This document shows, piece after piece, positions 1,405-40,861 of a stretch of DNA of 64,000 bases. A model generated the notes under the pieces. It worked only from the letters and a program-made list of their open reading frames with translations, made no database searches and was not told the DNA's origin. Position numbers and translations under genes: made by a program. This DNA is from a virus: the IMG/VR virus record IMGVR_UViG_3300030117_001886, positions 16,251 through 80,250 of that record; one strand, written 5' to 3'. The first letter of the stretch is position 1. Each line of letters starts with the position of its first letter.

Positions 1405-1844
1405 AAGTTTTTAATTAATTCTATGGTTTTTAGTACCTGGCCCTGATTCTTGGGCAGGTATAGTACTGGTGGATCTTCCAGTTGCATCAAATGATTTTTA
1501 AACATCTTCCATTTGATGGGAAAAACGTCGTTAGCGTAACCCTTGACCTCTATAATCCATTTACCATTAGGGTCAACAAAGTCAGGTGTGTATGTTATAT
1601 CTCTAACTTTTTTAGTATTATCTACATATCCTTTTCTTTTATCAGGCTCATAACATTCTGCCTCATAATGAAATCCTTGTAGTAGTATATACTTTTTCTT
1701 TTCGTATAGAGATTTTATACCTGCATCCTCTAGTTTCATATACGTAAAAAGTTCAAGCTTAGACCTGAACTTAATACCTTTATAAACCTTAGCGGTAGCA
1801 TTTTGTACCTTTTTGTTTTTTGATTTACGCGTTCTTCGTTTCAC
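1392..1844 (-). CDS. PD-(D/E)xK endonuclease, possible Holliday-junction resolvase
   Basis: A 150-residue basic protein. The core shows the nuclease pattern E31 (FRSKLELFTYM), D88 (YTPDF), then E99-V-K101 in WIIEVKGY, the E...D...ExK arrangement of T7 endonuclease I and of the DUF1064 phage nucleases. Such enzymes cleave branched DNA in recombination and packaging intermediates; cleavage specificity here is inferred. The start codon is GTG at 1844 and shares one base with the TAG stop of the primase gene (TAGTG), which implies translational coupling. The N-terminal 20 residues are Lys/Arg rich and may help bind DNA. Confidence 0.75.
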   Translation of the reverse strand: MKRRTRKSKNKKVQNATAKVYKGIKFRSKLELFTYMKLEDAGIKSLYEKKKYILLQGFHYEAECYEPDKRKGYVDNTKKVRDITYTPDFVDPNGKWIIEVKGYANDVFPIKWKMFKNHLMQLEDPPVLYLPKNQGQVLKTIELIKNLGSK

Positions 1845-2836
1845 TATAATTGTATGTCTATCAATGTTTTTAATCCTCCTGTTTCCTTAAATTTAGCAAT
1901 ATAATCTGACAAATCTTTTACTCCATAATCCTCTGGTAAATAAATATTTCTTATTGGATAATATTTTTTACATATCTTAGCAGCCATGGTCTGACCAGGA
2001 TTGCTTGGATTAGTAAAATCGTTATCATAAAATACTGCTAGCTTTTCAAATCGTTGTTTGAGTTCTTCTATTATTTCCCTGCTTGGCAACTGCATTTCTG
2101 ATTGCATGGCGACAGCGGGGATACCCATCTCGAAGAGGCACATAACGTCTTTGAGACTAGATGTAATAATACAGAGATTCCCTGTTTTAGGTAATTGATC
2201 ATATCCTTGAATTTGTTTAGAGTTAGTGTTACTCATCCACTTTACCTCATCACGAGGTGAGTAGATTTTGTATTTAGTTCCTATCTTATATGCATAGCTG
2301 AGGTTACAACTAAATCTACTTTCATTTATCCAGTAGTGCGAGATAGGGCTAACTGCAAACTTAATCAAAGTTTTCTTACTAATCAAGTACTGAGACCAAA
2401 ATTCTGCATCTTTTCTCATCCAGGGCCTAGTTTTCTTACGTATTACAACAACTCGTTTGTTTTCTACACGCATAGAAGACTTGTATCCAAGATAGCCTTT
2501 AGTAAAAGCCATCTCTTCTTTGTATGAAGAAAGATTCAAACCAAAATCGTTATCAATAATTCTAAGAGCTGAATAAAAACTACAATTATATACAGCCATT
2601 ACATATCCAAAGCAGTCAAATGTATGATCGGGATGGGCCCAATCTTTGTAGAGAAGTTTGCCGCGCCATAGTACAATACTAACGCCGGGTCTATCATCCT
2701 TTCTAAGTTCACTACAAAACTTAACTCCTATTTCTTTAAAAGAAGAACAGTAATAGCTAAAAATATCTATCTCTCTGATTTTACTCAGAACCATTTCTTT
2801 GGACAGATGATCTTCACTGCTTCTATTCTTAATCAT
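1844..2836 (-). CDS. DnaG-type DNA primase with divergent zinc and Toprim domains
   Basis: 330 residues. The N-terminal part (about 25-110) aligns by pattern with CHC2 primase zinc domains (R-x-D-D-R-P-x-x-S...LYKDW...DCFGYV), but most zinc ligands are missing. The C-terminal half holds a Toprim fold: CIITSSLKDVMCL, then FYDNDF for the DxD metal site, then KDLSDYIA. In canonical Toprim domains the first motif contains a catalytic Glu (EGxxD); here that position appears to be Ser. Lies next to SSB, Sak4-like and DnaB-type genes, which fits primer synthesis at the phage fork. Distance from canonical DnaG is large, so activity is inferred. Confidence 0.72.
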   Translation of the reverse strand: MIKNRSSEDHLSKEMVLSKIREIDIFSYYCSSFKEIGVKFCSELRKDDRPGVSIVLWRGKLLYKDWAHPDHTFDCFGYVMAVYNCSFYSALRIIDNDFGLNLSSYKEEMAFTKGYLGYKSSMRVENKRVVVIRKKTRPWMRKDAEFWSQYLISKKTLIKFAVSPISHYWINESRFSCNLSYAYKIGTKYKIYSPRDEVKWMSNTNSKQIQGYDQLPKTGNLCIITSSLKDVMCLFEMGIPAVAMQSEMQLPSREIIEELKQRFEKLAVFYDNDFTNPSNPGQTMAAKICKKYYPIRNIYLPEDYGVKDLSDYIAKFKETGGLKTLIDIQL

Positions 2837-4078: not shown

Positions 4079-4777
4079 TTAATCAATAAATATTTCTGAC
4101 CATTTTAAAGGCATGGTCTTACCTTTTAAGTGGTGACAACGTGAGCCAGCAGTTACATCATCCATAGAGTTGAAAGAAACCATAGTCTCATCATCCTCTC
4201 TGTAGATGTAGCCAACAGCGTCAGCGTTAGCACATGTTATCTGCTTGATCTTACCAGTCAAATCAAGGTCCTTTACAGCAACCTCTTTGCCTTTCTTCTC
4301 AAGCATTTTGTCCTTTAGGTGACCAACTAAGATAACATGATCTGCTAGTGTATTCAATCTATCTATCCATTTCTTGTAGGCTATACGTAAATATAAATAG
4401 CCAGCACCATTTGGCAATGATAGGACTGATGCACCAGGGTTCTTTTGTTCAAAGTTTTTACCCATAGGTGTTTTCATATAAATTTGTTTAGCTTCTGCTT
4501 CACACCATTCCTCAAGTTTTGAGATAGTGTCAATAGCAACATACTTATATGGTTTGCCATCTTTTACAATAGCTTTACCAACCTCAGCAAGTTCTTTCAA
4601 GTTACTAACTTTGATCTTCAAAGCATCAACCATGTCTGAACCTTCTTCAAGGTCAATAATCAAACAGTCTTTCAACTGCGATAATACTGTAGTCTTACCT
4701 ATCTTAGGTGGACCATAGATTATCATGTTCTTAGGCGATTTACGGCTCGCCTTAACCACAGTTTTTGGTAATTCCAT
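4079..4777 (-). CDS. Sak4-like RecA-fold ATPase (single-strand annealing/recombination)
   Basis: 232 residues, the usual length for phage Sak4/AAA_24 proteins. Walker A is G22-PPKIGK-T29, the second strand carries IIDLEEGSD (39-48), and Walker B is YKYVAIDT with D83. Family members are short RecA/Rad51-like ATPases that pair with a phage SSB to promote strand annealing. The SSB-like gene two positions downstream supports this. Its ATG overlaps the stop of the DnaB-type helicase by one base, so the two are translationally coupled. Substrate DNA and partner are inferred. Confidence 0.85.
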   Translation of the reverse strand: MELPKTVVKASRKSPKNMIIYGPPKIGKTTVLSQLKDCLIIDLEEGSDMVDALKIKVSNLKELAEVGKAIVKDGKPYKYVAIDTISKLEEWCEAEAKQIYMKTPMGKNFEQKNPGASVLSLPNGAGYLYLRIAYKKWIDRLNTLADHVILVGHLKDKMLEKKGKEVAVKDLDLTGKIKQITCANADAVGYIYREDDETMVSFNSMDDVTAGSRCHHLKGKTMPLKWSEIFID

Positions 4778-5724
4778 TATGTACGTTCTTTAATAGTGAA
4801 TGTATTTAGTTCTGCTTCATAGCCTATCATACCAAGTAACCCATCACGGTTCTTCTCTACATGACATGCTAGCAAGCCTTTAGGATTTTCACCACAATAC
4901 TCTGCCGTTATACCGTATAGATCATGCGGGCGTTGTAACATCATAACAACATGTGCATCTTGACCAATACTGTCACCACCAAATAGATCTGACAGCATAG
5001 GTTGGTATTGATTCTTTGCACGATGTTCTTGCTCAATGTTACGATTGAGTTGTGATAATAGTATGTTGACTGCGCCCATAGTAGACTGCATCCACATACA
5101 TCCTTTTGATATAGTATTTAGTTTCTTTAGTTCTGTATCTTCGCTTCCTCGTATTAGTCTTGAATGATCAAATATGTTTATTATTGTAGTTGTAGGTTTA
5201 CTTAGTTGTATCTCTTCGTTTGCGTTCATTATATATTCCATTGTCCTCGGCACATTATTAAAGTATATAGGATAGTTCCCATACTTCATAACTTTCTTTG
5301 CGTAGCTTTGAAAGTCCATGTCTGAAAGTCTTTTGTTTATTGACAGTAAATCTGCCATCTCTTTCTTTACATCTTTTGATGCGGACCTCATCACTTGCTG
5401 ATAACCAGGCATCTCAAATGTCCAATAAAGAACAACAATATTTTTATCCTTATTGTTGTCTAGTACATCAAAGATTAACTGATTACTAAATGCGGACTTA
5501 CCCACACCGGGGCGCCCTGCTATAACATACATCTTACCACGTTGTAGACCACCAAGAAGATTGCGATTGAGTCTAGGCCATAGAGTTGGTAATACATCAC
5601 GTTTACCAAGTTTAGCTTCTTTGACTATTGCGATTGATTGCTTTACAGCTTTGTCTATCTTCTGGAACCCACGGGTAGAGAATACGTCATAGCTTTCTGC
5701 TGATACGTTCTCTTTTTTCTCCAT
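4777..5724 (-). CDS. DnaB-type replicative helicase (RecA-like domain only)
   Basis: 315 residues. A short leader is followed by the RecA-like motor: LGGLQRGKMYVIAGRPGVGKS contains Walker A at 70-77, then a Walker B-like strand (IINIFDHSR), then NILLSQLNRN and DLFGGDSIGQDAHVVM, the sensor and arginine-finger region typical of DnaB C-terminal domains. The N-terminal domain that binds primase in DnaB is absent, as in many phage helicases. Start overlaps the end of the upstream 170-residue gene by 38 bp. Works with the Toprim primase and family A polymerase encoded in the same block. Confidence 0.88.
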   Translation of the reverse strand: MEKKENVSAESYDVFSTRGFQKIDKAVKQSIAIVKEAKLGKRDVLPTLWPRLNRNLLGGLQRGKMYVIAGRPGVGKSAFSNQLIFDVLDNNKDKNIVVLYWTFEMPGYQQVMRSASKDVKKEMADLLSINKRLSDMDFQSYAKKVMKYGNYPIYFNNVPRTMEYIMNANEEIQLSKPTTTIINIFDHSRLIRGSEDTELKKLNTISKGCMWMQSTMGAVNILLSQLNRNIEQEHRAKNQYQPMLSDLFGGDSIGQDAHVVMMLQRPHDLYGITAEYCGENPKGLLACHVEKNRDGLLGMIGYEAELNTFTIKERT

Positions 5725-6199
5725 CTTCTACATTTTCATACTTTTCCCAAGTATAATTATTTAACCAAGTTTCTATGTTCTGCATATACGCTATGTCTTG
5801 AACCTTTAGCTGATTGTTTAAGCATTTGATAATATACTTATGTACATGTGGTTTGTTTGCCACAAGTTTTGAGTATCTTTTCTTTGCTTTTTTGTTGCTA
5901 GCAGCGTCTGGATTTTTTGCACAGAGTACACGCACATTACCTGATGACGTTGTAACTCTATTAGGGTAAATACTTATTAGTTCTGCAAACATTGCATCTA
6001 CATCGGATACAAACAAATCAAGAAACTTTTCAGTAACTGTATTTTCATTTACCCATCCGCGTAGTTGCAAGTCTGCTGGATCATATTTAAGTTTTACTTT
6101 GTCTAAGAGATTTTGTGCATTCTTATACACAATATACAAGTATACATACTCATCAGGAGATAAATTATTTTCTGATATTAGTCTGATATTCAGGTCCAT
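5687..6199 (-). CDS. Hypothetical protein of the replication block
   Basis: 170 residues, mainly helical, basic in the middle (SNKKAKKRYSKLV). No domain recognised. It starts at ATG 6199 and its 3' end overlaps the helicase gene by 38 bp. In many phages the gene upstream of a truncated DnaB encodes a helicase partner or loader; there is no motif here that proves it. Confidence 0.65.
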   Translation of the reverse strand: MDLNIRLISENNLSPDEYVYLYIVYKNAQNLLDKVKLKYDPADLQLRGWVNENTVTEKFLDLFVSDVDAMFAELISIYPNRVTTSSGNVRVLCAKNPDAASNKKAKKRYSKLVANKPHVHKYIIKCLNNQLKVQDIAYMQNIETWLNNYTWEKYENVEDGEKRERISRKL

Positions 6200-6219: not shown

Positions 6220-6447
6220 TTAATATTCAATTCCAAGATTTTTTGCTTGCAATCTTCTATCTTCTTCTTCAATTACAACTGCATACAAATTCATAATATC
6301 ATCCAAAGTACAATCACAATTAAACTCTTTAGCCACAAGATCTGGCAACTCAGTTAAACATCTTGTTTCGTATTTTTCATGAACTAGCAGCACTGCTATT
6401 TCTAACATCTCTTTAGGTAATTTACCTTGTGTAACTTCTATAACCAT
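6220..6447 (-). CDS. Small hypothetical protein
   Basis: 75 residues, acidic, helical, with no recognisable motif. It starts at ATG 6447, overlapping the end of the SF2 helicase gene by 10 bp, and lies 20 bp before the next gene, so it belongs to the same transcript. Confidence 0.55.
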   Translation of the reverse strand: MVIEVTQGKLPKEMLEIAVLLVHEKYETRCLTELPDLVAKEFNCDCTLDDIMNLYAVVIEEEDRRLQAKNLGIEY

Positions 6448-7604
6448 TTTACATTATTTAAGGATTTAACACTACTTTTTAACCACTTCTCTTCCTGACT
6501 ATCTTTTACATATAGTACATATATCTTACCAATCTTACCTTCTTGGTACCTGATAATCCTACCCACTCTCTGTATCATAGTTAGCCCTTTGCTGGTTAAT
6601 CCACATATTACAGCCATTGTTGCATCTGCTACATCAAACCCTTGATTCAAAGCCTTAGTAGAGCATAGCACAGGTTTATCACCTGATCTAAAATCTGCTA
6701 GCGCTTGTTCTTTTGCTTTCTTACGTATACCGCTATGGTATATAGTAGAAAAAGGTTCTGTAGCATCTGCAAGTTTATTTGTAAACTCATTGTCACCACC
6801 AAACACAAGTATTTTTTCACCTATGTTCTTGATAACAATCTTTTGCAATGCAGCAATCTTACCATCGGCATGGTCTACTACAGCTTTACGTTGTCTAATA
6901 GCTCTGTAAAACTGTGCGGCTGCTGCTTTTTGTTCGTTTGTAGCTGTATTCTTGCCTGGCCCCATAATGTACTTTGCCTGATCAAACGCATCAAATTGTC
7001 CAAGAATATATTTAGAGTAAACAAAAGTATTGTTTGCTTTCTTATAATCTTTTTGTTCTGAATCTGTTAGTTTGATAGGTACGCAATGTACTACATAGGG
7101 AGACACTAATCCCAACTCAACACATTTGTCAAGTGAGATTCTATACACCACAGGAGACATTTCATACAATACCTCTTTGTATTCTATATCTTCTGGCGGT
7201 GTTGCAGTCATACATAATAATCTATCCCAAGTATTGTTCTCAAAAAACTTACGATACTCAGGAGACAAGCCTAGATGTATTTCATCACAAACCACCACGG
7301 TGTAATGATTACTCTCTAACTTATATGCAGACTGATAACATACTATATCAACACGATCTAAAACGTGTTCATAGTTCCATTTTATAAACTCTTGTTTAAA
7401 TTGTTCTTGAAGCTGATGTGTAGGCACTAGCACAAGACCCTTGCCAGACTCAGTACTATCCAAAGTTTTACCAACGGCAATAACTCCACATCTAGACTTA
7501 CCAAAACCGGTACCAGCAATAATGCTGCCACTAAACTTATGTTTAGCCCAATTATTAAGAGCTCTCTTTTGTTCTTCATCTTTTATTTTAATTAGCTTAG
7601 ACAT
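6438..7604 (-). CDS. SF2 DNA helicase (UvsW/DEAD-like)
   Basis: 388 residues from ATG 7604. The motor motifs are all visible: Walker A AGTGFGKS (30-37), DEIH (107-110), TAT (133-135) and, near residue 340, QRVGRIIR, which is motif VI. This is the layout of compact phage SF2 helicases that remodel forks or recombination intermediates, as T4 UvsW does. The ATG at 7604 shares a base with the TAA stop of the preceding winged-helix gene (TAATG), favouring this start. A start five codons earlier (7619) is possible but would overlap more. Confidence 0.88.
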   Translation of the reverse strand: MSKLIKIKDEEQKRALNNWAKHKFSGSIIAGTGFGKSRCGVIAVGKTLDSTESGKGLVLVPTHQLQEQFKQEFIKWNYEHVLDRVDIVCYQSAYKLESNHYTVVVCDEIHLGLSPEYRKFFENNTWDRLLCMTATPPEDIEYKEVLYEMSPVVYRISLDKCVELGLVSPYVVHCVPIKLTDSEQKDYKKANNTFVYSKYILGQFDAFDQAKYIMGPGKNTATNEQKAAAAQFYRAIRQRKAVVDHADGKIAALQKIVIKNIGEKILVFGGDNEFTNKLADATEPFSTIYHSGIRKKAKEQALADFRSGDKPVLCSTKALNQGFDVADATMAVICGLTSKGLTMIQRVGRIIRYQEGKIGKIYVLYVKDSQEEKWLKSSVKSLNNVKWL

Positions 7605-7867
7605 TATTTGCACTTCCATAAGTTTACCGTCCTTTCTGTTTGAGTATCATAAAAATCACCAGCATGTTCTACCAATCCCTTCTCACGAAGCTCTGATACA
7701 CGTCCTGTAACTCTGTTAATATCCCAATCTAGTTTTTTAGCAATCATTCTGTTAGTGGCCTGCCCAAGATCTACATGTAATACTTTTAAAACTTGTGCCT
7801 GTCTTTTACTAATTGTACCCTCGTCAAATAACTTTTGATAGGAGGATACTGATTTATCATTTACCAT
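7604..7867 (-). CDS. Small winged-helix DNA-binding protein
   Basis: 87 residues. SKRQAQVLKVLH, then NRMIAKKLDWDINRVTGRV and SELREKGLVEH read as a winged helix-turn-helix of the MarR/LexA-like class, with a recognition helix around NRVTGRVSEL and a short wing after it. No sensor or dimerisation domain is present. Placed between helicase and DnaA-domain genes and coupled by TAATG to the SF2 helicase, so it could regulate early transcription or act in replication. Its target is unknown. Confidence 0.7.
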   Translation of the reverse strand: MVNDKSVSSYQKLFDEGTISKRQAQVLKVLHVDLGQATNRMIAKKLDWDINRVTGRVSELREKGLVEHAGDFYDTQTERTVNLWKCK

Positions 7868-8099
7868 ATATGTTTTCTTCTATTTCTTCACTAATATGTT
7901 CAGAGCAAGCTATACCAGTCTTTTCTAAGAAAGGTAGTATATCTACAGTTCTATAGCTTGAAGAGTCCTTTTCCATAGCATGTATAAATACACGATGAAC
8001 GATCACTCCACCTACATACCCTGTAGTATCATCTGCTTCTGAATAGTCATACTCAGCTTGAAGACTATAATCTTGTATTTCAAACTCATATAAATTCAT
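7857..8099 (-). CDS. Small hypothetical protein
   Basis: 80 residues, acidic, beta-rich, no known motif. Starts at ATG 8099 and overlaps both neighbours (4 bp with the DnaA-domain gene, 11 bp with the winged-helix gene), the usual mark of a real operon member. Confidence 0.6.
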   Translation of the reverse strand: MNLYEFEIQDYSLQAEYDYSEADDTTGYVGGVIVHRVFIHAMEKDSSSYRTVDILPFLEKTGIACSEHISEEIEENIYGK

Positions 8100-8533
8100 G
8101 TTAGTAATTCTTTTACGTTAATAATTTGTTCTTTTAGTTCCTTATTTTCATGTTCGAGATATTCTACACGAGCTGCAAACTTTGCAATCATGTCATCTTT
8201 ATCATTACAATCAGACATGCCTTTAATACCTACAGCTACTTCACATATACCAAAAAATTCTGCATATGGTTTATCTACATCCATAAGATCAGCGTGTACC
8301 TTGAATGCATGTAACACAGTAGAGTGATCTCTATGAAACACGCCAGCATTTACAGTCGTACTATAATGCAACTTATCATTGATAAGAACCATGCATATAC
8401 GTCTTGCTGCAACTACCTCGCCTTGTCTTGTTTTACCTCTAATTTTACTAATAGGAACTTCAGTTAGCCTAGATACTGTAGCAAGTATTCTTGCAACGTT
8501 TGCATCTAGTTTATATAATTTTACTTTTCCCAT
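8096..8533 (-). CDS. Stand-alone DnaA domain IV (origin-binding domain) protein
   Basis: 145 residues. Residues 10-82 match the helical DNA-binding domain IV of bacterial DnaA: a conserved helix (VPISKIRGKTR), AARRICMVLI, and the DnaA signature FHRDHSTVLHAFK at 66-78 (compare GGRDHTTVLHA in DnaA). There is no AAA+ ATPase domain. The C-terminal 50 residues form a likely coiled coil. The family binds DnaA boxes; here the gene overlaps the DNA polymerase start by 13 bp, so a job at the phage origin, or in competing with host DnaA, is likely but inferred. Confidence 0.85.
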   Translation of the reverse strand: MGKVKLYKLDANVARILATVSRLTEVPISKIRGKTRQGEVVAARRICMVLINDKLHYSTTVNAGVFHRDHSTVLHAFKVHADLMDVDKPYAEFFGICEVAVGIKGMSDCNDKDDMIAKFAARVEYLEHENKELKEQIINVKELLT

Positions 8534-10425
8534 GATTTACTAATATTTGTGTCTGCTTTTAACAAACCGTTAGTTACTACTTTTAATGCCGCATCCTCCA
8601 TGTGTCTAGTCATAATATCTACCCATTGTTCTGCAAATTCTATCTTACAAATAGTATCAATCTGATCATGAACTGTCATTACAATCTTCACAGGATAGTT
8701 ATTCTTCTTGATAGCTTGACGAATATATATAAGAGCAAGTTTAGTCATGTCAGCTGATGCGCCTTGTATAGGTGTATTTTTACTAGCACGTTCTATACTA
8801 CCAAGCTCAAAGGCTTGACTCTTGTCTTTGTATATGCGGGGATACCATGTAGGAAACCAGCGTCTTCTATTGAAAGGGGGAAAGGTTTTTATATATCCAA
8901 ACTTTTTACCAAACGAACCAAGCTTATCAAGGAATCCACCGATAGCTGGGAATGCTGCAAAATATTTTTGAATAAGTATCTCTGCTTCTTTAATAGTAAT
9001 GTTAAGAGTATCTGCAAGTTTATGTGGGCCCATACCGTAAGCAAGACCAAAGTTAATTGTCTTAACATTTGTTCTTAACTTACCGTGTTTAGGACATTTA
9101 CATTTACTCTTATTCTTCATATAACTACAATTCTCTTCAGCTGTATCTATCCACTCTTGGCCATAAACAAGATCTGCACATACACTGTGCAAGTCCTGTC
9201 CTTGTTCAAGAGCATTTATCCATACAGGATCTTTAGAACCAAATGCTATTACATTTAGCTCTTGAGAAGAATAATCACTAGATACAAAGCACCAACCTCC
9301 AGGAGCAAGAAAACAATTACGGAACTTATTATCCGCAGGTATCTGTTGCATGTTTGGCTTCTTGGATGCGACGCGTCCAGTGTCAAGTATTTGATTGAAT
9401 TGTGTATGTATTTTACCATCGCTTGAAACAAATTTAAAGAAGTCTTTACCATAAGAAGTAGCAAGCTTCATCTTTTCTTTGTACTTAACATACAAATCAA
9501 TGATTTCATACTTGTGTCTGTATTTATACATCTTCTTACCGTTAACGTCTTCTAGATCAGGGACCAATTTTTTAAATACTTTAAGTACTTGTGTAGGGCT
9601 GGTCCACTTAATCCCCACTTTACGTAAATCTTCTTTAGGAGTAAACAAGTCACCTTGAATATGAGATGGGACAAATTCAGACAGTTGATGATTATTAACT
9701 ACAAATTCGTCTAGTTTATCCCTCATAGTCAAGGCTTCTTGTTCGCTAGCTCGTGCGATGACCTCCCAAGCCTCTCTATCAATATCAATACCATTGTATT
9801 CAATATCAGAGAATGCTAACACCGCTCGATTTTCAAGTTCTACTACCTTGTTTAGTTTAAATTCATCTATCTTAGGTAGTTGTAGATTACGTAGTTTACA
9901 TAAATACTCTACATCTTTAGCACCGTATTGTATTTGATCATCACGATAGGCCTGACCTTGTAGACCTATAAACTGATTTCTGGTTTCTTTGTTAAGTTCT
10001 ACATTTAAGTATCTCTTACAAAGGTCTTTCAATCCATAGCCTATGTGACGACCACAAGATAACACACGTTCCACCAAAAACGTATCATATACGTTATCAC
10101 ACTCTATGTTTGCCCATTTCTTAATAAATTTATAGTCAAACTTAGCATTGTGAAATATTTTAATAATCTTTTTACTTTCTAGTATTTGTCTAAGAGGTTC
10201 TATACTGATATGTCTAGTATCAATTACATACTGGTTGTTCTCATCACCTATCTGAAACATAATCATTTTCTTACAGGTAAAGTCAAAGCCTTCAGTCTCA
10301 GTGTCAACACCGAGGACTTCCTGTCTTCCGCAATAAGCTACAGCTTGATTGATAGTAGCTAGTTCATATAAATCACTATTAAAGTCGTCTCCTAGAGCAG
10401 TACTATTTGTTATCAGCTTTATCAT
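8521..10425 (-). CDS. polA: Family A DNA polymerase with 3'-5' exonuclease
   Basis: 634 residues. The N-terminal third is a DEDDy proofreading exonuclease: GVDTET with D41 and E43 (Exo I), FHNAKFDY with D97 (Exo II) and YGAKDVEYL (Exo III). The polymerase part has motif A (SSDYSSQELNVIA), motif B (KTINFGLAYGM) and motif C at VHDQ (585-588). Cellular enzymes have HDE in motif C; here Glu is replaced by Gln at 588. No 5'-3' exonuclease domain. This is the phage replicase, working with the primase and DnaB-type helicase nearby. A short Cys cluster near 9100-9130 (CSYMKNKSKCKCPKHGK) between motifs A and B looks like a small zinc-binding insert. Confidence 0.95.
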   Translation of the reverse strand: MIKLITNSTALGDDFNSDLYELATINQAVAYCGRQEVLGVDTETEGFDFTCKKMIMFQIGDENNQYVIDTRHISIEPLRQILESKKIIKIFHNAKFDYKFIKKWANIECDNVYDTFLVERVLSCGRHIGYGLKDLCKRYLNVELNKETRNQFIGLQGQAYRDDQIQYGAKDVEYLCKLRNLQLPKIDEFKLNKVVELENRAVLAFSDIEYNGIDIDREAWEVIARASEQEALTMRDKLDEFVVNNHQLSEFVPSHIQGDLFTPKEDLRKVGIKWTSPTQVLKVFKKLVPDLEDVNGKKMYKYRHKYEIIDLYVKYKEKMKLATSYGKDFFKFVSSDGKIHTQFNQILDTGRVASKKPNMQQIPADNKFRNCFLAPGGWCFVSSDYSSQELNVIAFGSKDPVWINALEQGQDLHSVCADLVYGQEWIDTAEENCSYMKNKSKCKCPKHGKLRTNVKTINFGLAYGMGPHKLADTLNITIKEAEILIQKYFAAFPAIGGFLDKLGSFGKKFGYIKTFPPFNRRRWFPTWYPRIYKDKSQAFELGSIERASKNTPIQGASADMTKLALIYIRQAIKKNNYPVKIVMTVHDQIDTICKIEFAEQWVDIMTRHMEDAALKVVTNGLLKADTNISKSWEK

Positions 10426-11922: not shown

Positions 11923-12044
11923 TGGTCTCTTTTTTGTACGGATTTAACGTAATCTAACCAATCAAGCTTATCTGTGTAATAAGCATTTTTAAATATGGCA
12001 TTGTATAAGCCATACTTGATAACTACTCTAATGAATTGTTTCAT
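11919..12044 (-). CDS. Small 41-residue early protein
   Basis: Starts at ATG 12044 and ends in TGA at 11919-11921, which overlaps the ATG of the next gene (ATGA). The product begins MKQFIRVVIKYGLYNAIFK and is basic and amphipathic, with YYTDKLDWLDYV near its end. It lies downstream of the structured non-coding region. Function unknown; supported by the stop/start overlap and normal codon choice. Confidence 0.6.
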   Translation of the reverse strand: MKQFIRVVIKYGLYNAIFKNAYYTDKLDWLDYVKSVQKRDQ

Positions 12045-12076
12045 GATAATAAATGAATTAAGTGAATAAAAATGAT

Positions 12077-12095
12077 GAGACATTTCAGCTGTCTC
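12077..12095 (-). terminator. Weak terminator-like hairpin
   Basis: GAGACA and TGTCTC enclose a 7-nt loop; on the minus strand ATCATTTTTATT follows. Would end or attenuate transcription between the structured RNA and the 41-residue gene. Confidence 0.35.
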
Positions 12096-12114
12096 TTTGC
12101 TGTAAATTTTGTTA

Positions 12115-12226
12115 GATAATTAACTTATGCTATCCAGAGCGTTCCTCTCTTGCCTGATCAACAACTGGCCCTCCTAATGTCTACCCCCTCTCGAGGAACA
12201 TCGCAGCCATGGCATAAGTTATTATC
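12115..12226. ncRNA. Candidate structured RNA or cruciform: 112-nt nested inverted repeat
   Basis: Outer arms 12115-12130 and 12212-12226 are reverse complements over 15 of 16 positions, with one unpaired base (core AACTTATGC/GCATAAGTT). Inside them a second pair, GCGTTCCTC and GAGGAACATCGC, continues the stem with a two-base offset. The inner loop is GC-rich compared with its surroundings. No tRNA features are present. Strand cannot be set from the repeat alone; neighbours run leftward. Confidence 0.45.
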
Positions 12227-12355
12227 TTACTTAATGTGTTCATATAATACTTTTCAAAGATGCATAATCTAAGCGCTTAGTTATACACACAGAGCAGGAC
12301 CAGTTTGTTTCTGGAATTATTGGTTAATACTAATTCGATTACTCCTGAATAATCT

Positions 12356-12374
12356 AAAAGTGAGCTCCACTTTT
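12356..12374 (-). terminator. Hairpin after the gene at 12384
   Basis: Stem AAAAGTG/CACTTTT with a 5-nt loop, 10 bp past the stop codon. The T run on the minus strand is only four bases, so termination may be partial. Confidence 0.45.
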
Positions 12375-12383
12375 TATTAAGGA

Positions 12384-13303: not shown

Positions 13304-13684
13304 TTAAGCCCTAGAAATGATGTTACGCATTTTTCCGTTAATCACTTTTGCTTCAACTTCTACTTGTTGATTGGTTAAACTGATACCTTGTAGAATATCG
13401 TTTTCCCATTCTTCAAGATTCAATGTTCCCTCTTGTATTAAAGTTTTATCTCCAAAGTTTACATTGAATTTACCTAAGTTTAGAATAAATTCTCCTTTGT
13501 CTGTTTTAACACAGATAGTTTTAAAAGGTCGTACTCCACCTACCAAAGTAGCATTGTATGTTCCCTCGTCTAGTTTTGATTCACTAGAACCTCCAGCAAT
13601 TACTGAAGCGTTTGGATTTAGTTCTTGCATTTGCATAGCTTTTTTGTAAGCTACCATTTCTGCTGTTTCTGTTAATGTTGCCAT
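13304..13684 (-). CDS. First gene of the leftward block, hypothetical beta-rich protein
   Basis: 126 residues. After a helical start the body reads as alternating strands (EGTYNATLVGG, TICVKTDKGEFILNL, QQVEVEAKVING), which could be a small OB- or SH3-like barrel, but no signature confirms this. Being first in the leftward direction and closed by its own strong terminator, it is likely made early and in quantity. No TAnnTTTG element is seen directly upstream on the minus strand. Confidence 0.6.
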   Translation of the reverse strand: MATLTETAEMVAYKKAMQMQELNPNASVIAGGSSESKLDEGTYNATLVGGVRPFKTICVKTDKGEFILNLGKFNVNFGDKTLIQEGTLNLEEWENDILQGISLTNQQVEVEAKVINGKMRNIISRA

Positions 13685-13722
13685 AACGATTTAATAAATT
13701 AAGTTAATAAAATTTGTGTGTA

Positions 13723-13786
13723 CTTGGGCAAAATGGGGTGTACCCCATGCACCAAGACCCACAGGGGCTACATTATGGGGAGGTCT
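13723..13786. other. Nested hairpins in the divergent control region
   Basis: A palindrome ATGGGGTGTACCCCAT (13733-13748) sits inside a second stem CTTGG/CCAAG (13723-13756). A further stem AGACC/GGTCT spans 13755-13786. Directly after it comes a run of A/T (13795-13840). The block separates leftward and rightward transcription, so it may be an operator, a leader of the leftward transcript, or part of an origin. Confidence 0.45.
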
Positions 13787-13833
13787 GCGCACTCAAAAAT
13801 TTTCCAAAAATTTTTTTTATTTTATTTTTTATA

Positions 13834-13841
13834 TATATTTG
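13834..13841 (+). promoter_or_regulatory. Rightward promoter -7 element TATATTTG
   Basis: TATATTTGCAC matches the Bacteroidota -7 consensus TAnnTTTG. No TTTG -33 box is present at 19-21 bases upstream; the region there is an A/T run. First rightward promoter of the window. Confidence 0.55.
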
Positions 13842-13890
13842 CACATGACCTTCAAAGAAATATTGAGAAACTGTAAACGAAAATTAATAG

Positions 13891-14025
13891 ATGGCGACAA
13901 GAAATACATTTACAAGAGTAGACACACCGAAGAAAAAAAGACCAGGGATACATGCAAAAAGCAAAACAAGTAAGCTTACAAGTTCTAAGAACTACCGCAA
14001 AAAGTACAAAGGTCAAGGAAGATAA
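13891..14025 (+). CDS. Small very basic protein (44 residues)
   Basis: Starts at ATG 13891 and reads MATRNTFTRVDTPKKKRPG, then HAKSKTSK, ending in KNYRKKYKGQGR. Such short Lys/Arg-rich proteins are often found beside structural genes in phages of Bacteroidota and are presumed to bind nucleic acid. It lies 50 bp after the TATATTTG element. An alternative frame from ATG 13845 (42 codons, MTFKEILRNCKRK) overlaps it; codon sense and the conserved-looking KKKRPG...RGQGR-type ending favour the 13891 frame. Confidence 0.65.
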   Translation: MATRNTFTRVDTPKKKRPGIHAKSKTSKLTSSKNYRKKYKGQGR

Positions 14026-14037
14026 GAATAATTTGTG

Positions 14038-14045
14038 TATATTTG
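14038..14045 (+). promoter_or_regulatory. Rightward promoter -7 element TATATTTG
   Basis: TATATTTGCAC, identical over 11 bases to the element at 13834. It lies 13 bp past the stop of the 44-residue gene. The next rightward gene starts 360 bp later, so a transcript from here would carry a long leader running antisense to the small gene at 14165-14350. Confidence 0.5.
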
Positions 14046-14164
14046 CACAAGCAGAGGCATTCCTTAATAGGAATATCACCCCTGAGGACCGAAAGGGCAG
14101 TAGGGGGTCAGACGTGGGATTTATACCTAGTAACATAATAGTAATATGGCCCTAGGCAAATACG

Positions 14165-14350
14165 CTAGAAAAAACGCTGTGACAGCGAATCATCAGTAGG
14201 AAATTTTCTCCCATAGCCTCGAAAAGGAAAGATATAGAACCTAGTTGGGATAGAATACATATTAGGTAAGTGTGGTGAATTAACACCGTGATAATTATCC
14301 CTTGGTCTTCTCAAAGAAGAAAGCACTGCTAGGTTTGAAATTCTAACCAT
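14165..14350 (-). CDS. Small leftward protein in the divergent region
   Basis: 61 residues, MVRISNLAVLSSLRRPRDN followed by HGVNSPHLPNMYSIP and FPFRGYGRKFP. Codons are those normal for this phage (AGA, TCT, CCA, ACT), and AGGAG precedes the ATG by 10 bases, one of few good ribosome-binding sites here. It is the only leftward gene between rightward ones. No known family; could instead be chance within a long leader. Confidence 0.42.
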   Translation of the reverse strand: MVRISNLAVLSSLRRPRDNYHGVNSPHLPNMYSIPTRFYIFPFRGYGRKFPTDDSLSQRFF

Positions 14351-14405
14351 AATTACAAAACTCCTAGGGGGAACCTATATCTAGACTGCACATATAATTA
14401 TAATT

Positions 14406-14621
14406 ATGGGAAAATCAAAACCAAATAATCCTAGCTTGTGGTCACGAGCAAAAGCTGCGGCCAGAAAGAAGTTTAAGGTGTATCCATCTGCATATGCTAA
14501 TGCGTGGGCATCTAAATGGTACAAATCAAAAGGTGGCACATGGCGAGGAGCTGACAATAGAGTAAAGAAATCTATGAAAGGTGGATTTACTATGGAGAAA
14601 GGACCTGCTAAATTAGACTAA
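14406..14621 (+). CDS. DUF5872-like small basic protein
   Basis: 71 residues. LWSRAKAAARKKFKVYPSAY followed by ANAWASKWYKSKGGTWR is the pattern I associate with DUF5872, a short basic family found in phages and giant viruses. The C-terminus is Lys/Gly rich (VKKSMKGGF). Probably a nucleic-acid-binding or virion protein; no function has been shown that I know of. Forms a pair with the next gene, 2 bp away. Confidence 0.75.
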   Translation: MGKSKPNNPSLWSRAKAAARKKFKVYPSAYANAWASKWYKSKGGTWRGADNRVKKSMKGGFTMEKGPAKLD

Positions 14622-38323: not shown

Positions 38324-40861
38324 ATGAATAATTTTACAAAAATATTATATGCAGTGTTAATGATAGTTGTATTTGCTACAGCTACAGCATTCGGGCAGGC
38401 TTCATATATGGTTATAGAGGCACAATACGACTCGTGGGGACCACAAGAGTCTAGCTTTGAAATATTAGATGTAAATGGAAATCAAGTATATTTTAATCAG
38501 CCTACAATCCAAGACGAATATTTACTGGATACATTATGGATAGGGGCTGGTTCTTATACAGCTATATTGTATGATCAGTATGGAGATGCATGGCAAGATA
38601 CAGATCTACAAGGATACTTTAGAATATGGAATGCGTGTCAAGATACAATGGTAGAGTTTTTATGTAGTCAAACTAATTACTTTGCTACAGAAACAATACC
38701 TTTTATGTTAGGACCTTGTAATCCAAATGCACCTCCACCTCCACCATGTTTACAAGCAACAGTTATTATCAACCTAGATCAGTATCAGTCAGAAACATCT
38801 TGGCAGATAGCTGATACTAATGGTATGGTAGTTGCTTCAGGAAGTGGGTATGGAGCTGAACCTGATTATGGAACAGTTGTAATACCAGTCTGTTTACCAC
38901 AAGGACCGCTAGAGTTTACTATAATGGATACATACGGTGATGGCTTACAAGGGTCATTGTGGCAAGGACAAGATGGTTCTTATTTTATTAAACAATGTAA
39001 TGATACACTAGTATTTGGTACAGATCCAGCATTTGGGAATGATACAATACATCCTTTTGTAATTGATAGTTGTCCACCAATACCTGGTTGTACAGACCCA
39101 GATTACTTAGAGTATAACCCATTTGCAGATGTAGATGATGGTAGCTGTTTGACAGTAGCTGTATATGGATGTATTGATAGTACAATGTATAACTACGACC
39201 CTAATGCTAACGCAATGCTTGTAACACCTGTTTGTGAGTATAAATTAACTTTACATGACTTGGTTGGTAATGGTTGGATAGCGTCAAACTTAAAAATAGT
39301 TACACCTGATACTATGATGAATTTTACTCATACAGGTGGTTTTACAGACACTTACTATTTTTATTTACCTACAGGAACACCTGTAACAAGTATATTTACT
39401 ATAAGTAATCAGGCATCACTTACAACAATAGAATGTGGATTTACTTTAACAAATCCAGAAGGTGACACAGTTATACATGTACCTGCACCATTTGTACAAC
39501 CTATATTCCCGTATCAAGGAGTAAGTGTTTGTCCTAATGAGTGTATAGATAAAATATTTGGATGTACAGATACATTAGCATTAAACTATCAAGACACTGT
39601 AAATACAGATGATGGCAGTTGTTATTATGTAGCTGGGTGTATGAATCCATTATATTTAGAGTATAATAATCTAGCTGATTATGATGATGGGTCATGCTCT
39701 ACTTTGATTGTAGTAGGTTGTATGGACAGTACAGCATATAATTATGATCCTGCAGCAAATGTAGAATTAGCTGGTTCTTGCATACCTTTTGTATATGGAT
39801 GTATGGACCCAATGATGTTTAACTATGATCCACTAGCAACAGCAGCTGATACATGTATACCTTATATATATGGTTGTACAGACGCTAGTATGTTTAATTA
39901 TAATATAAATGCTAATACAGATAACGGAAGTTGTATTGAATTTGTCTATGGTTGTACAGATAGCACAATGTTTAATTATAACCCTCTAGCTAATACAGAT
40001 AATGGATCTTGTACGCCTTATGTGTACGGATGTATGGATATTGATGCACTTAATTATAATGCATTAGCTAACACAGATGATGGAACTTGTATAGATGTTG
40101 TTTTAGGTTGTACTGATTCAACAGCGTTTAACTATAATATTTTAGCGAATACAGATGACGGCTCATGCATATCCGTTGTTTGGGGCTGTACTGATGGTGC
40201 GGCCTTTAATTACAATTCATTAGCCAATACGGATGATGGGTCTTGTGTTCCTGTTATTTTTGGATGTATAGATCCAACTATGTGGAATTATTGTGATACT
40301 TGTAATACTGATAATGGAAATTGTATACCTTACTACTATGGATGCACAGACAGCACAGCACTTAATTATGACGATAATGCAAATACTGATAATGGTAGCT
40401 GTATTTATCCTCTGTCTGGCTGCACTGATGCGACCGCTATTAATTACAATCCGCTTGCTAACGTGGCAGACAGTTCGTGTTATTATAGTGCTGGGTGTAA
40501 CTCTGGTGATGTATATTATATTCCTGACGCTTGTTTTGAGTGGGTAATACAAGTAGATCCATATTGCTGTGATGATACTTGGGATGGTACATGTGACGCA
40601 TTATATGCATATTGTGAAGATGGTTGGTCAGGGCCAACAGATGTTGCAATGTATGAAAGGTCAGCACTTATACCATATCCTAATCCAACAAAAGATTACA
40701 TAAACTTTAAAGAAGAGGTGGATGTATTAGTAATAGACAATTTAGGCAAAGATCATGTTCTTTATAAGAACACTAGAAGAATAAAACTAGATAAAGGGAT
40801 AAACTATTTAAGGGTTACTAAAGATAAAGTAAACTTTACAACAATAATAATTGTACAATGA
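38324..40861 (+). CDS. T9SS-exported surface protein with 14 GCTD repeats
   Basis: 845 residues. Residues 1-24 are a signal peptide (cleavage AFG before Q25). Two beta domains follow (about 25-250, related to each other: both contain DTYGDG- or DQYGDA-like turns), then 14 repeats of GCTDxxxxNYxxxANTDNGSC (about 254-722), a Cys-rich segment (YCCDDTWDGTC), and finally a T9SS type A sorting domain at about 784-845: PYPNPTKDYINF, VLVIDNLG, then KGINYLRV and a last strand. Known T9SS cargo is carried through the outer membrane and fixed to or released from the cell surface. The host must own the T9SS. Function for the phage is unknown. Confidence 0.85.
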   Translation: MNNFTKILYAVLMIVVFATATAFGQASYMVIEAQYDSWGPQESSFEILDVNGNQVYFNQPTIQDEYLLDTLWIGAGSYTAILYDQYGDAWQDTDLQGYFRIWNACQDTMVEFLCSQTNYFATETIPFMLGPCNPNAPPPPPCLQATVIINLDQYQSETSWQIADTNGMVVASGSGYGAEPDYGTVVIPVCLPQGPLEFTIMDTYGDGLQGSLWQGQDGSYFIKQCNDTLVFGTDPAFGNDTIHPFVIDSCPPIPGCTDPDYLEYNPFADVDDGSCLTVAVYGCIDSTMYNYDPNANAMLVTPVCEYKLTLHDLVGNGWIASNLKIVTPDTMMNFTHTGGFTDTYYFYLPTGTPVTSIFTISNQASLTTIECGFTLTNPEGDTVIHVPAPFVQPIFPYQGVSVCPNECIDKIFGCTDTLALNYQDTVNTDDGSCYYVAGCMNPLYLEYNNLADYDDGSCSTLIVVGCMDSTAYNYDPAANVELAGSCIPFVYGCMDPMMFNYDPLATAADTCIPYIYGCTDASMFNYNINANTDNGSCIEFVYGCTDSTMFNYNPLANTDNGSCTPYVYGCMDIDALNYNALANTDDGTCIDVVLGCTDSTAFNYNILANTDDGSCISVVWGCTDGAAFNYNSLANTDDGSCVPVIFGCIDPTMWNYCDTCNTDNGNCIPYYYGCTDSTALNYDDNANTDNGSCIYPLSGCTDATAINYNPLANVADSSCYYSAGCNSGDVYYIPDACFEWVIQVDPYCCDDTWDGTCDALYAYCEDGWSGPTDVAMYERSALIPYPNPTKDYINFKEEVDVLVIDNLGKDHVLYKNTRRIKLDKGINYLRVTKDKVNFTTIIIVQ
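39084..40490 (+). repeat. Fourteen-copy GCTD repeat array in the T9SS cargo gene
   Basis: Units of about 24-26 codons beginning GG(T/A)TGTA and often ending in gctaatacagataatgg-like DNA. The copies between 39860 and 40250 are close to each other at DNA level, which suggests recent expansion by recombination. Confidence 0.8.

What the first reader, a model, noticed from the sequence alone, without database searches (positions are those of the whole stretch)
8096..8533. Stand-alone DnaA domain IV beside the phage DNA polymerase
The DnaA signature FHRDHSTVLHA is complete but there is no AAA+ domain. The protein may mark the phage origin, recruit host DnaA or DnaB loaders through its coiled-coil tail, or block host DnaA boxes and stop host replication.
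Basis: partly seen in the sequence, partly recalled or inferred. Interest (0 to 1): 0.7.

Follow-up and report, generated by a model that had tools for sequence, protein, structure and literature searches.

The report
Phage stand-alone DnaA DNA-binding domain
A crAss-like phage carries, directly behind its DNA polymerase gene, a small protein made only of the DNA-reading domain of the bacterial replication starter DnaA plus a leucine-zipper-like tail; such stand-alone domains are already annotated in many phages, but what they do has not been shown.

Summary
ORF 8096-8533(-) encodes 145 aa with a significant Bac_DnaA_C domain (PF08299, E=8e-14). Its AlphaFold model superposes on E. coli DnaA domain IV (Z 16.7, 1.5 A over 93 residues). 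The phage record has no DnaA AAA+ domain. The tail is a conserved heptad helix (p=0.0006), probably a dimer-forming zipper. The gene overlaps the polA stop codon in most relatives and is under purifying selection (dN/dS about 0.13). The record is a Crassvirales phage; ten other Crassvirales genomes lack the gene.

It is not a new kind: stand-alone DnaA domain IV proteins are annotated in Cellulophaga, Flavobacterium, Pelagibacter and Nonlabens phages and in PHROGs.

No DnaA-box cluster exists in this phage or its relatives, and one near-complete relative has no TTWTNCACA at all, while the same test finds E. coli oriC. So marking a phage origin through canonical boxes is unsupported. Best guess: a dimeric, site-specific DNA-binding subunit of the phage replication module acting at non-canonical sites (0.45). 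Blocking host DnaA boxes and transcription regulation remain open.

The parts
8096..8533 (-). stand-alone DnaA domain IV protein, 145 aa
   Evidence: ORF; PF08299 E=8e-14; model and fold match; relatives
8300..8494 (-). Bac_DnaA_C helix-turn-helix domain (residues 14-78)
   Evidence: residues aligned to E. coli R399, R407, R432, D433, H434, T436, H439 are kept, T435 is Ser
8306..8338 (-). DnaA signature FHRDHSTVLHA (residues 66-76)
   Evidence: translation
8102..8200 (-). zipper-like helix (residues 112-144), core positions I116 F119 V123 L126 N130 L133 I137 V140 L144
   Evidence: helix in model; heptad permutation p=0.0006, Asn130 at position a in 19 of 20 homologs
8521..10425 (-). family A DNA polymerase with 3'-5' exonuclease; its end overlaps the start of the DnaA-IV gene
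   Evidence: PF00476 E=2.7e-68; synteny
7857..8099 (-). 80-aa protein of unknown function; its start overlaps the stop of the DnaA-IV gene
   Evidence: recognisable in only two of the relatives tested
7604..7867 (-). small winged-helix protein (phrog_1123)
   Evidence: E=2.7e-15
6438..7619 (-). superfamily 2 helicase
4777..5724 (-). DnaB-like replicative helicase, C-terminal domain only
   Evidence: PF03796; no PF00772 in the record
4079..4777 (-). Sak4-like single-strand annealing protein
   Evidence: phrog_124 E=1e-31
1844..2836 (-). DNA primase
   Evidence: phrog_12622 E=3.6e-48

Best explanation
A dimeric, sequence-specific double-stranded DNA-binding protein of the phage replication module. 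Shown: a predicted DnaA domain IV fold, most box-contacting residues kept, a conserved zipper-like tail, and a conserved place in the replication operon, usually overlapping polA. Inferred: two domain IV heads are joined by the zipper, bind sites on phage DNA that are not canonical DnaA boxes, and act there as the site-recognition subunit for the phage's own helicase, primase and polymerase. With no ATPase it cannot open DNA in the way DnaA does, so opening would come from the SF2 helicase, transcription or another phage protein.
For: Fold: 1j1v Z 16.7, rmsd 1.5 over 93 residues; Foldseek TM-score 0.87-0.90 on the solved domain IV chains. E. coli contact residues R399, R407, R432, D433, H434, T436 and H439 are all present. 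Zipper heptad p=0.0006, with Asn at a central 'a' position. polA-dnaAIV order is kept in nearly all loci; the one exception (L044) has the gene between dnaB and sak4, still inside the replication cluster. dN/dS 0.13 overall, 0.11 in the HTH. Neighbours are PolA, SF2 helicase, DnaB-like helicase, Sak4 and primase, with no recognised origin-binding protein. Other phages also keep such genes near replication or recombination genes: SSB and RecT in phi13:2, nuclease and annealing protein in Greip, SSB and helicase in mumin9-1. In a subclade the recognition motif itself changes (GKSHCTVLH in L040, GKTHCTVLH in L043), which suggests that the target site can drift, unlike the widely conserved host DnaA box.
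Against: No cognate site or origin could be found: no iterons, no box cluster. Lying next to polA does not prove a role in replication. Ten other Crassvirales genomes have no match to PF08299, so the function is dispensable or done otherwise there. Dimerisation is inferred from sequence and a single-chain model only.
Confidence: 0.45

Rival explanations
1. Host-replication inhibitor: the zipper-joined domain IV heads occupy DnaA boxes at host oriC but carry no AAA+ domain, so they act as a dominant-negative competitor of host DnaA and stop host initiation.
For: Box-contacting residues are kept. The phage genome has no box cluster, and TTWTNCACA is below expectation in all four relatives (7, 0, 6 and 7 against about 11-12 each), as expected if sites that would titrate the protein are avoided; the same holds for Cellulophaga phi13:2, which has such a gene (5 against 11-12).
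Against: The gene sits in the replication operon, not in a separate region of small takeover genes. Judged against permuted motifs the shortage is extreme only in G001 (0 of 2000 as low); in the other three 12-16% of permuted motifs are as low. Host DnaA alone could select for the same shortage.
Confidence: 0.22
2. Transcription regulator: a dimeric DNA-binding protein controlling phage or host promoters, with no role in initiation; full-length DnaA also acts as a transcription factor (knowledge).
For: HTH plus zipper is a common regulator design; no origin found. Short DnaA-IV-like proteins of unknown role are modelled in NCBIfam (PRK06030, weak match E=0.005).
Against: Polymerase-helicase context conserved in nearly all relatives; the same operon already has a small winged-helix protein.
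Confidence: 0.23
3. Host DnaA adaptor: the protein mixes with host DnaA on phage DNA and brings the host initiation machinery to the phage.
For: Pelagibacter phages with such a gene (HTVC204P, Greip) show no annotated polymerase, primase or replicative helicase of their own, so there a host-recruiting role is attractive.
Against: This phage encodes its own polymerase, primase and DnaB-like helicase. The domains through which DnaA contacts itself and DnaB (I and III, knowledge) are missing, and there is no box cluster for host DnaA.
Confidence: 0.07

Closest known systems
DnaA domain IV (PF08299 Bac_DnaA_C; solved structures 1j1v, 3pvp)
   Same: Fold (Z 16.7 and 16.6), recognition helix with RDHxTVLH, contact residues R399, R407, R432, D433, H434, T436, H439.
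   Different: No domains I-III; T435 is Ser here and Ala, Thr or Cys in relatives; C-terminal zipper added; Q408 is Arg, K415 is Asn.
Stand-alone DnaA-IV proteins of phages: Cellulophaga phi13:2, phi18:3, phi46:3, phi19:3, phi19:1, phi10:1 'DnaA protein'; Flavobacterium mumin-type 'bacterial helix-turn-helix protein'; Pelagibacter Greip and HTVC204P; Nonlabens P12024L; PHROG 27829 'DnaA-like replication initiation protein'
   Same: Small proteins (about 110-180 aa) made of a domain IV without AAA+; replication or recombination neighbourhood in those inspected.
   Different: Not close in sequence: this protein matches no PHROG strongly (best E=0.003). The zipper tail is conserved in this family; Pelagibacter members carry an N-terminal extension instead.
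NCBIfam PRK06030 (NF004688, NF004686), hypothetical proteins, models of 123-151 positions
   Same: Short protein with a DnaA-IV-like region.
   Different: Weak match (E=0.005, far below cut-off); not a member.
IS200-like HuH transposase subgroup 2.1.2 with a C-terminal Bac_DnaA_C domain (PMC6006769)
   Same: DnaA-IV domain detached from DnaA; that paper also notes that the flanking repeats do not resemble DnaA boxes.
   Different: Fused to a HuH nuclease; none here.

Membership tests
Bac_DnaA_C (PF08299) domain | profile score above the curated cut-off | tested here: met
   51.9 bits against 31.5
Bac_DnaA_C (PF08299) domain | DnaA domain IV fold | tested here: met
   AlphaFold pLDDT 84; 1j1v Z 16.7, rmsd 1.5 over 93 residues
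Bac_DnaA_C (PF08299) domain | binding to TTATNCACA boxes | not testable with these tools
   Most contact residues are kept; binding itself needs an assay
DnaA (chromosomal replication initiator, TIGR00362) | whole-protein equivalog score | tested here: not met
   45.7 bits against 343.9
DnaA (chromosomal replication initiator, TIGR00362) | AAA+ ATPase domain (PF00308) | tested here: not met
   No match in this record or three relatives, controls positive
Stand-alone phage DnaA-IV proteins (informal group) | domain IV alone in a short phage protein, no AAA+ | tested here: met
   145 aa, PF08299 only; same architecture
Canonical origin-binding use of DnaA (cluster of DnaA boxes in the genome it serves) | cluster of box-like 9-mers above chance | tested here: not met
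   At most 3 one-mismatch boxes in 500 bp in four phage genomes, reached by 22-98% of shuffles; E. coli oriC as control, 0 of 300 shuffles
Leucine-zipper (GCN4-like) dimeriser | hydrophobic a/d heptad conserved across homologs | tested here: met
   permutation p=0.0006 over the best of seven registers
Leucine-zipper (GCN4-like) dimeriser | dimer in solution | not testable with these tools
   only a single-chain model could be made

The most novel reading that the evidence does not exclude
A zipper-joined DnaA domain IV that a crAss-like phage uses as a dominant-negative plug of host oriC, while keeping its own genome poor in DnaA boxes so that the plug is not titrated.
Probability: 0.15. Interest if true: 0.65.

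Novelty: new member of a known kind. Interest (0 to 1): 0.32.

Why it matters
Stand-alone DnaA domain IV proteins recur in unrelated phages and are often labelled 'DnaA' or 'replication initiation', although the ATPase that makes DnaA an initiator is missing. None of the eight phage genomes with such a gene that were tested has a cluster of canonical DnaA boxes, so the label may mislead. A binding-site experiment on one member would settle whether phages use this domain on their own DNA or against the host.

Tried and rejected
DnaA-box clusters or enrichment in phage genomes: none. Over-represented 8-10-mers: no site could be picked out; whether the listed words lie in coding sequence was not checked one by one. 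Iterons or close repeats of 9-12 bases: no array that recurs in the relatives. The divergent intergenic region 13684-14406: two copies of TATATTTGCACA-like sequence, read as promoter-like, no box cluster; its flanking genes have no match in the relatives, so it could not be footprinted. Origin from GC skew: the cumulative skew turns near window 13600, which is also where gene direction flips, so it is not evidence of an origin. Close relatives in bacterial genomes: none confirmed with the two patterns used, which does not exclude distant ones. Rfam and tRNA searches of the window: nothing. MT835965.1, the only hit of the window protein in the phage collection, encodes a DnaA with an AAA+ region and may be a bacterial fragment. 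Literature: 'crAss-like' plus DnaA gave three papers, not read in full; the crAss-like survey PMC7886860 does not mention DnaA in its main text.

Full report
What is there. The ORF at 8096-8533 on the minus strand is real and reads 145 aa. Pfam finds one significant family, Bac_DnaA_C, at E=8e-14 over residues 14-78. A search of solved sequences ranks E. coli, M. tuberculosis and T. maritima DnaA first (organisms of the entries are from knowledge). An AlphaFold model built on 20 window and viral homologs has mean pLDDT 84 and superposes on E. coli domain IV bound to its box (1j1v) with Z 16.7, 1.5 A over 93 residues. The AAA+ family of DnaA is absent from this record and three relatives, with positive controls.

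Where it is. The window is bases 16251-80250 of an 80,250-base viral record. Its large terminase matches crAss-like phages at 38-43% identity, so it is a Crassvirales phage. The sample source is not told; 'marine' would rest only on my recollection of the JGI sample numbers of the relatives and was not tested. A Bacteroidota host is likely from Crassvirales membership (knowledge), from promoter-like TATATTTG elements and from a type IX secretion tail on another phage gene. Circularly shifted matches show that the 80-83 kb relatives G001-G003 cover about the same circle, so they are near complete. The operon order is polA, DnaA-IV, an 80-aa ORF, a winged-helix protein, an SF2 helicase, two small ORFs, a DnaB-like helicase, Sak4 and, further on, a primase. 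polA and the DnaA-IV gene overlap by 13 nt, and the next gene starts inside its stop.

How conserved. About 35 loci carry it at 58-98% identity, plus four more distant ones. polA is its upstream neighbour in nearly all; in L044 the gene lies between dnaB and sak4. Median dN/dS is 0.13. All tested relatives have exactly one copy, but they were found by this gene, so that is not an independent frequency. Ten other Crassvirales records have none.

Anatomy. Aligned to E. coli, R399, R407, R432, D433, H434, T436 and H439 are kept and T435 is Ser. In relatives T435 is Ala, Ser, Thr or Cys, and L040 and L043 read GKSHCTVLH and GKTHCTVLH, losing D433. Which E. coli residues touch the box is taken from knowledge of the 1j1v structure, not tested here. 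Residues 112-144 form one helix with a conserved heptad core (I116 F119 V123 L126 N130 L133 I137 V140 L144; p=0.0006), and Asn130 sits at a central 'a' position in 19 of 20 sequences, as in GCN4-type dimers. Dimerisation is therefore likely but not shown.

Does the phage carry boxes for it? Exact TTATCCACA occurs 0, 0, 1 and 2 times in the four genomes; TTWTNCACA 7, 0, 6 and 7 times against about 11-12 expected. Against 2000 letter-permuted motifs the shortage is extreme only in G001. One-mismatch boxes are at about the expected number and do not cluster. Cellulophaga phi13:2, Pelagibacter Greip and HTVC204P and Flavobacterium mumin9-1, which also have such genes, show no cluster either. The same test on 40 kb of E. 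coli finds oriC. An origin made of other sites is not excluded.

Is it known? Yes, as a kind. GenBank already labels stand-alone domain IV proteins 'DnaA protein' in six Cellulophaga phages, 'bacterial helix-turn-helix protein' in Flavobacterium phages and 'Bac_DnaA_C domain-containing protein' or 'DNA replication initiation' in Pelagibacter phages. A viral structure library lists dozens of 'DnaA C-terminal' proteins, most of about 90-200 aa. PHROG 27829 is named 'DnaA-like replication initiation protein'. PMC6811365 lists DnaA among proteins of HTVC010P-related phages and PMC4615864 in two Polaribacter phages; the domain content of those was not checked here. No paper found in these searches tests the function.

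Judgement. The best-supported reading is a dimeric site-specific DNA-binding subunit of the phage replication module working at non-canonical sites (0.45). A host DnaA-box blocker (0.22), a transcription regulator (0.23) and a host DnaA adaptor (0.07) remain. What is added here is modest: the zipper architecture of this crAss-like lineage, its loss of D433 in a subclade, and the absence of canonical box clusters in every phage tested.

Noticed in passing
38324-40861 (+): An 845-aa protein with many GCTD..NYN..ANTDDGSC repeats, a hydrophobic N-terminus and a type IX secretion C-terminal sorting domain (TIGR04183 23.9 bits against a cut-off of 23; PF18962 just below its cut-off). A phage gene with a T9SS cargo tail would be unusual and points to a Bacteroidota host.
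   Followed up: partly
L047 4848-5414, L048 4764-5414, L049 3250-3861: Phage proteins that join a DnaA domain IV to a C-terminal DUF4406 (nucleoside deoxyribosyltransferase-like) domain (scanned for L047; the other two are very similar in sequence).
   Followed up: partly
5687-6199 (-): A 170-aa protein between the SF2 helicase and the DnaB-like helicase that is only 41-46% identical in relatives whose neighbours are mostly 65-95% identical; no significant family match. A candidate helicase loader or initiator.
   Followed up: no
11923-12383: A 461-base stretch without a gene inside the minus-strand operon, with one TTATACACA; no long blastn match in the relatives.
   Followed up: no
13684-14406: Divergent intergenic region of about 700 bases with two TATATTTGCACA-like copies resembling the Bacteroidota TAnnTTTG promoter element; no Rfam match.
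   Followed up: no
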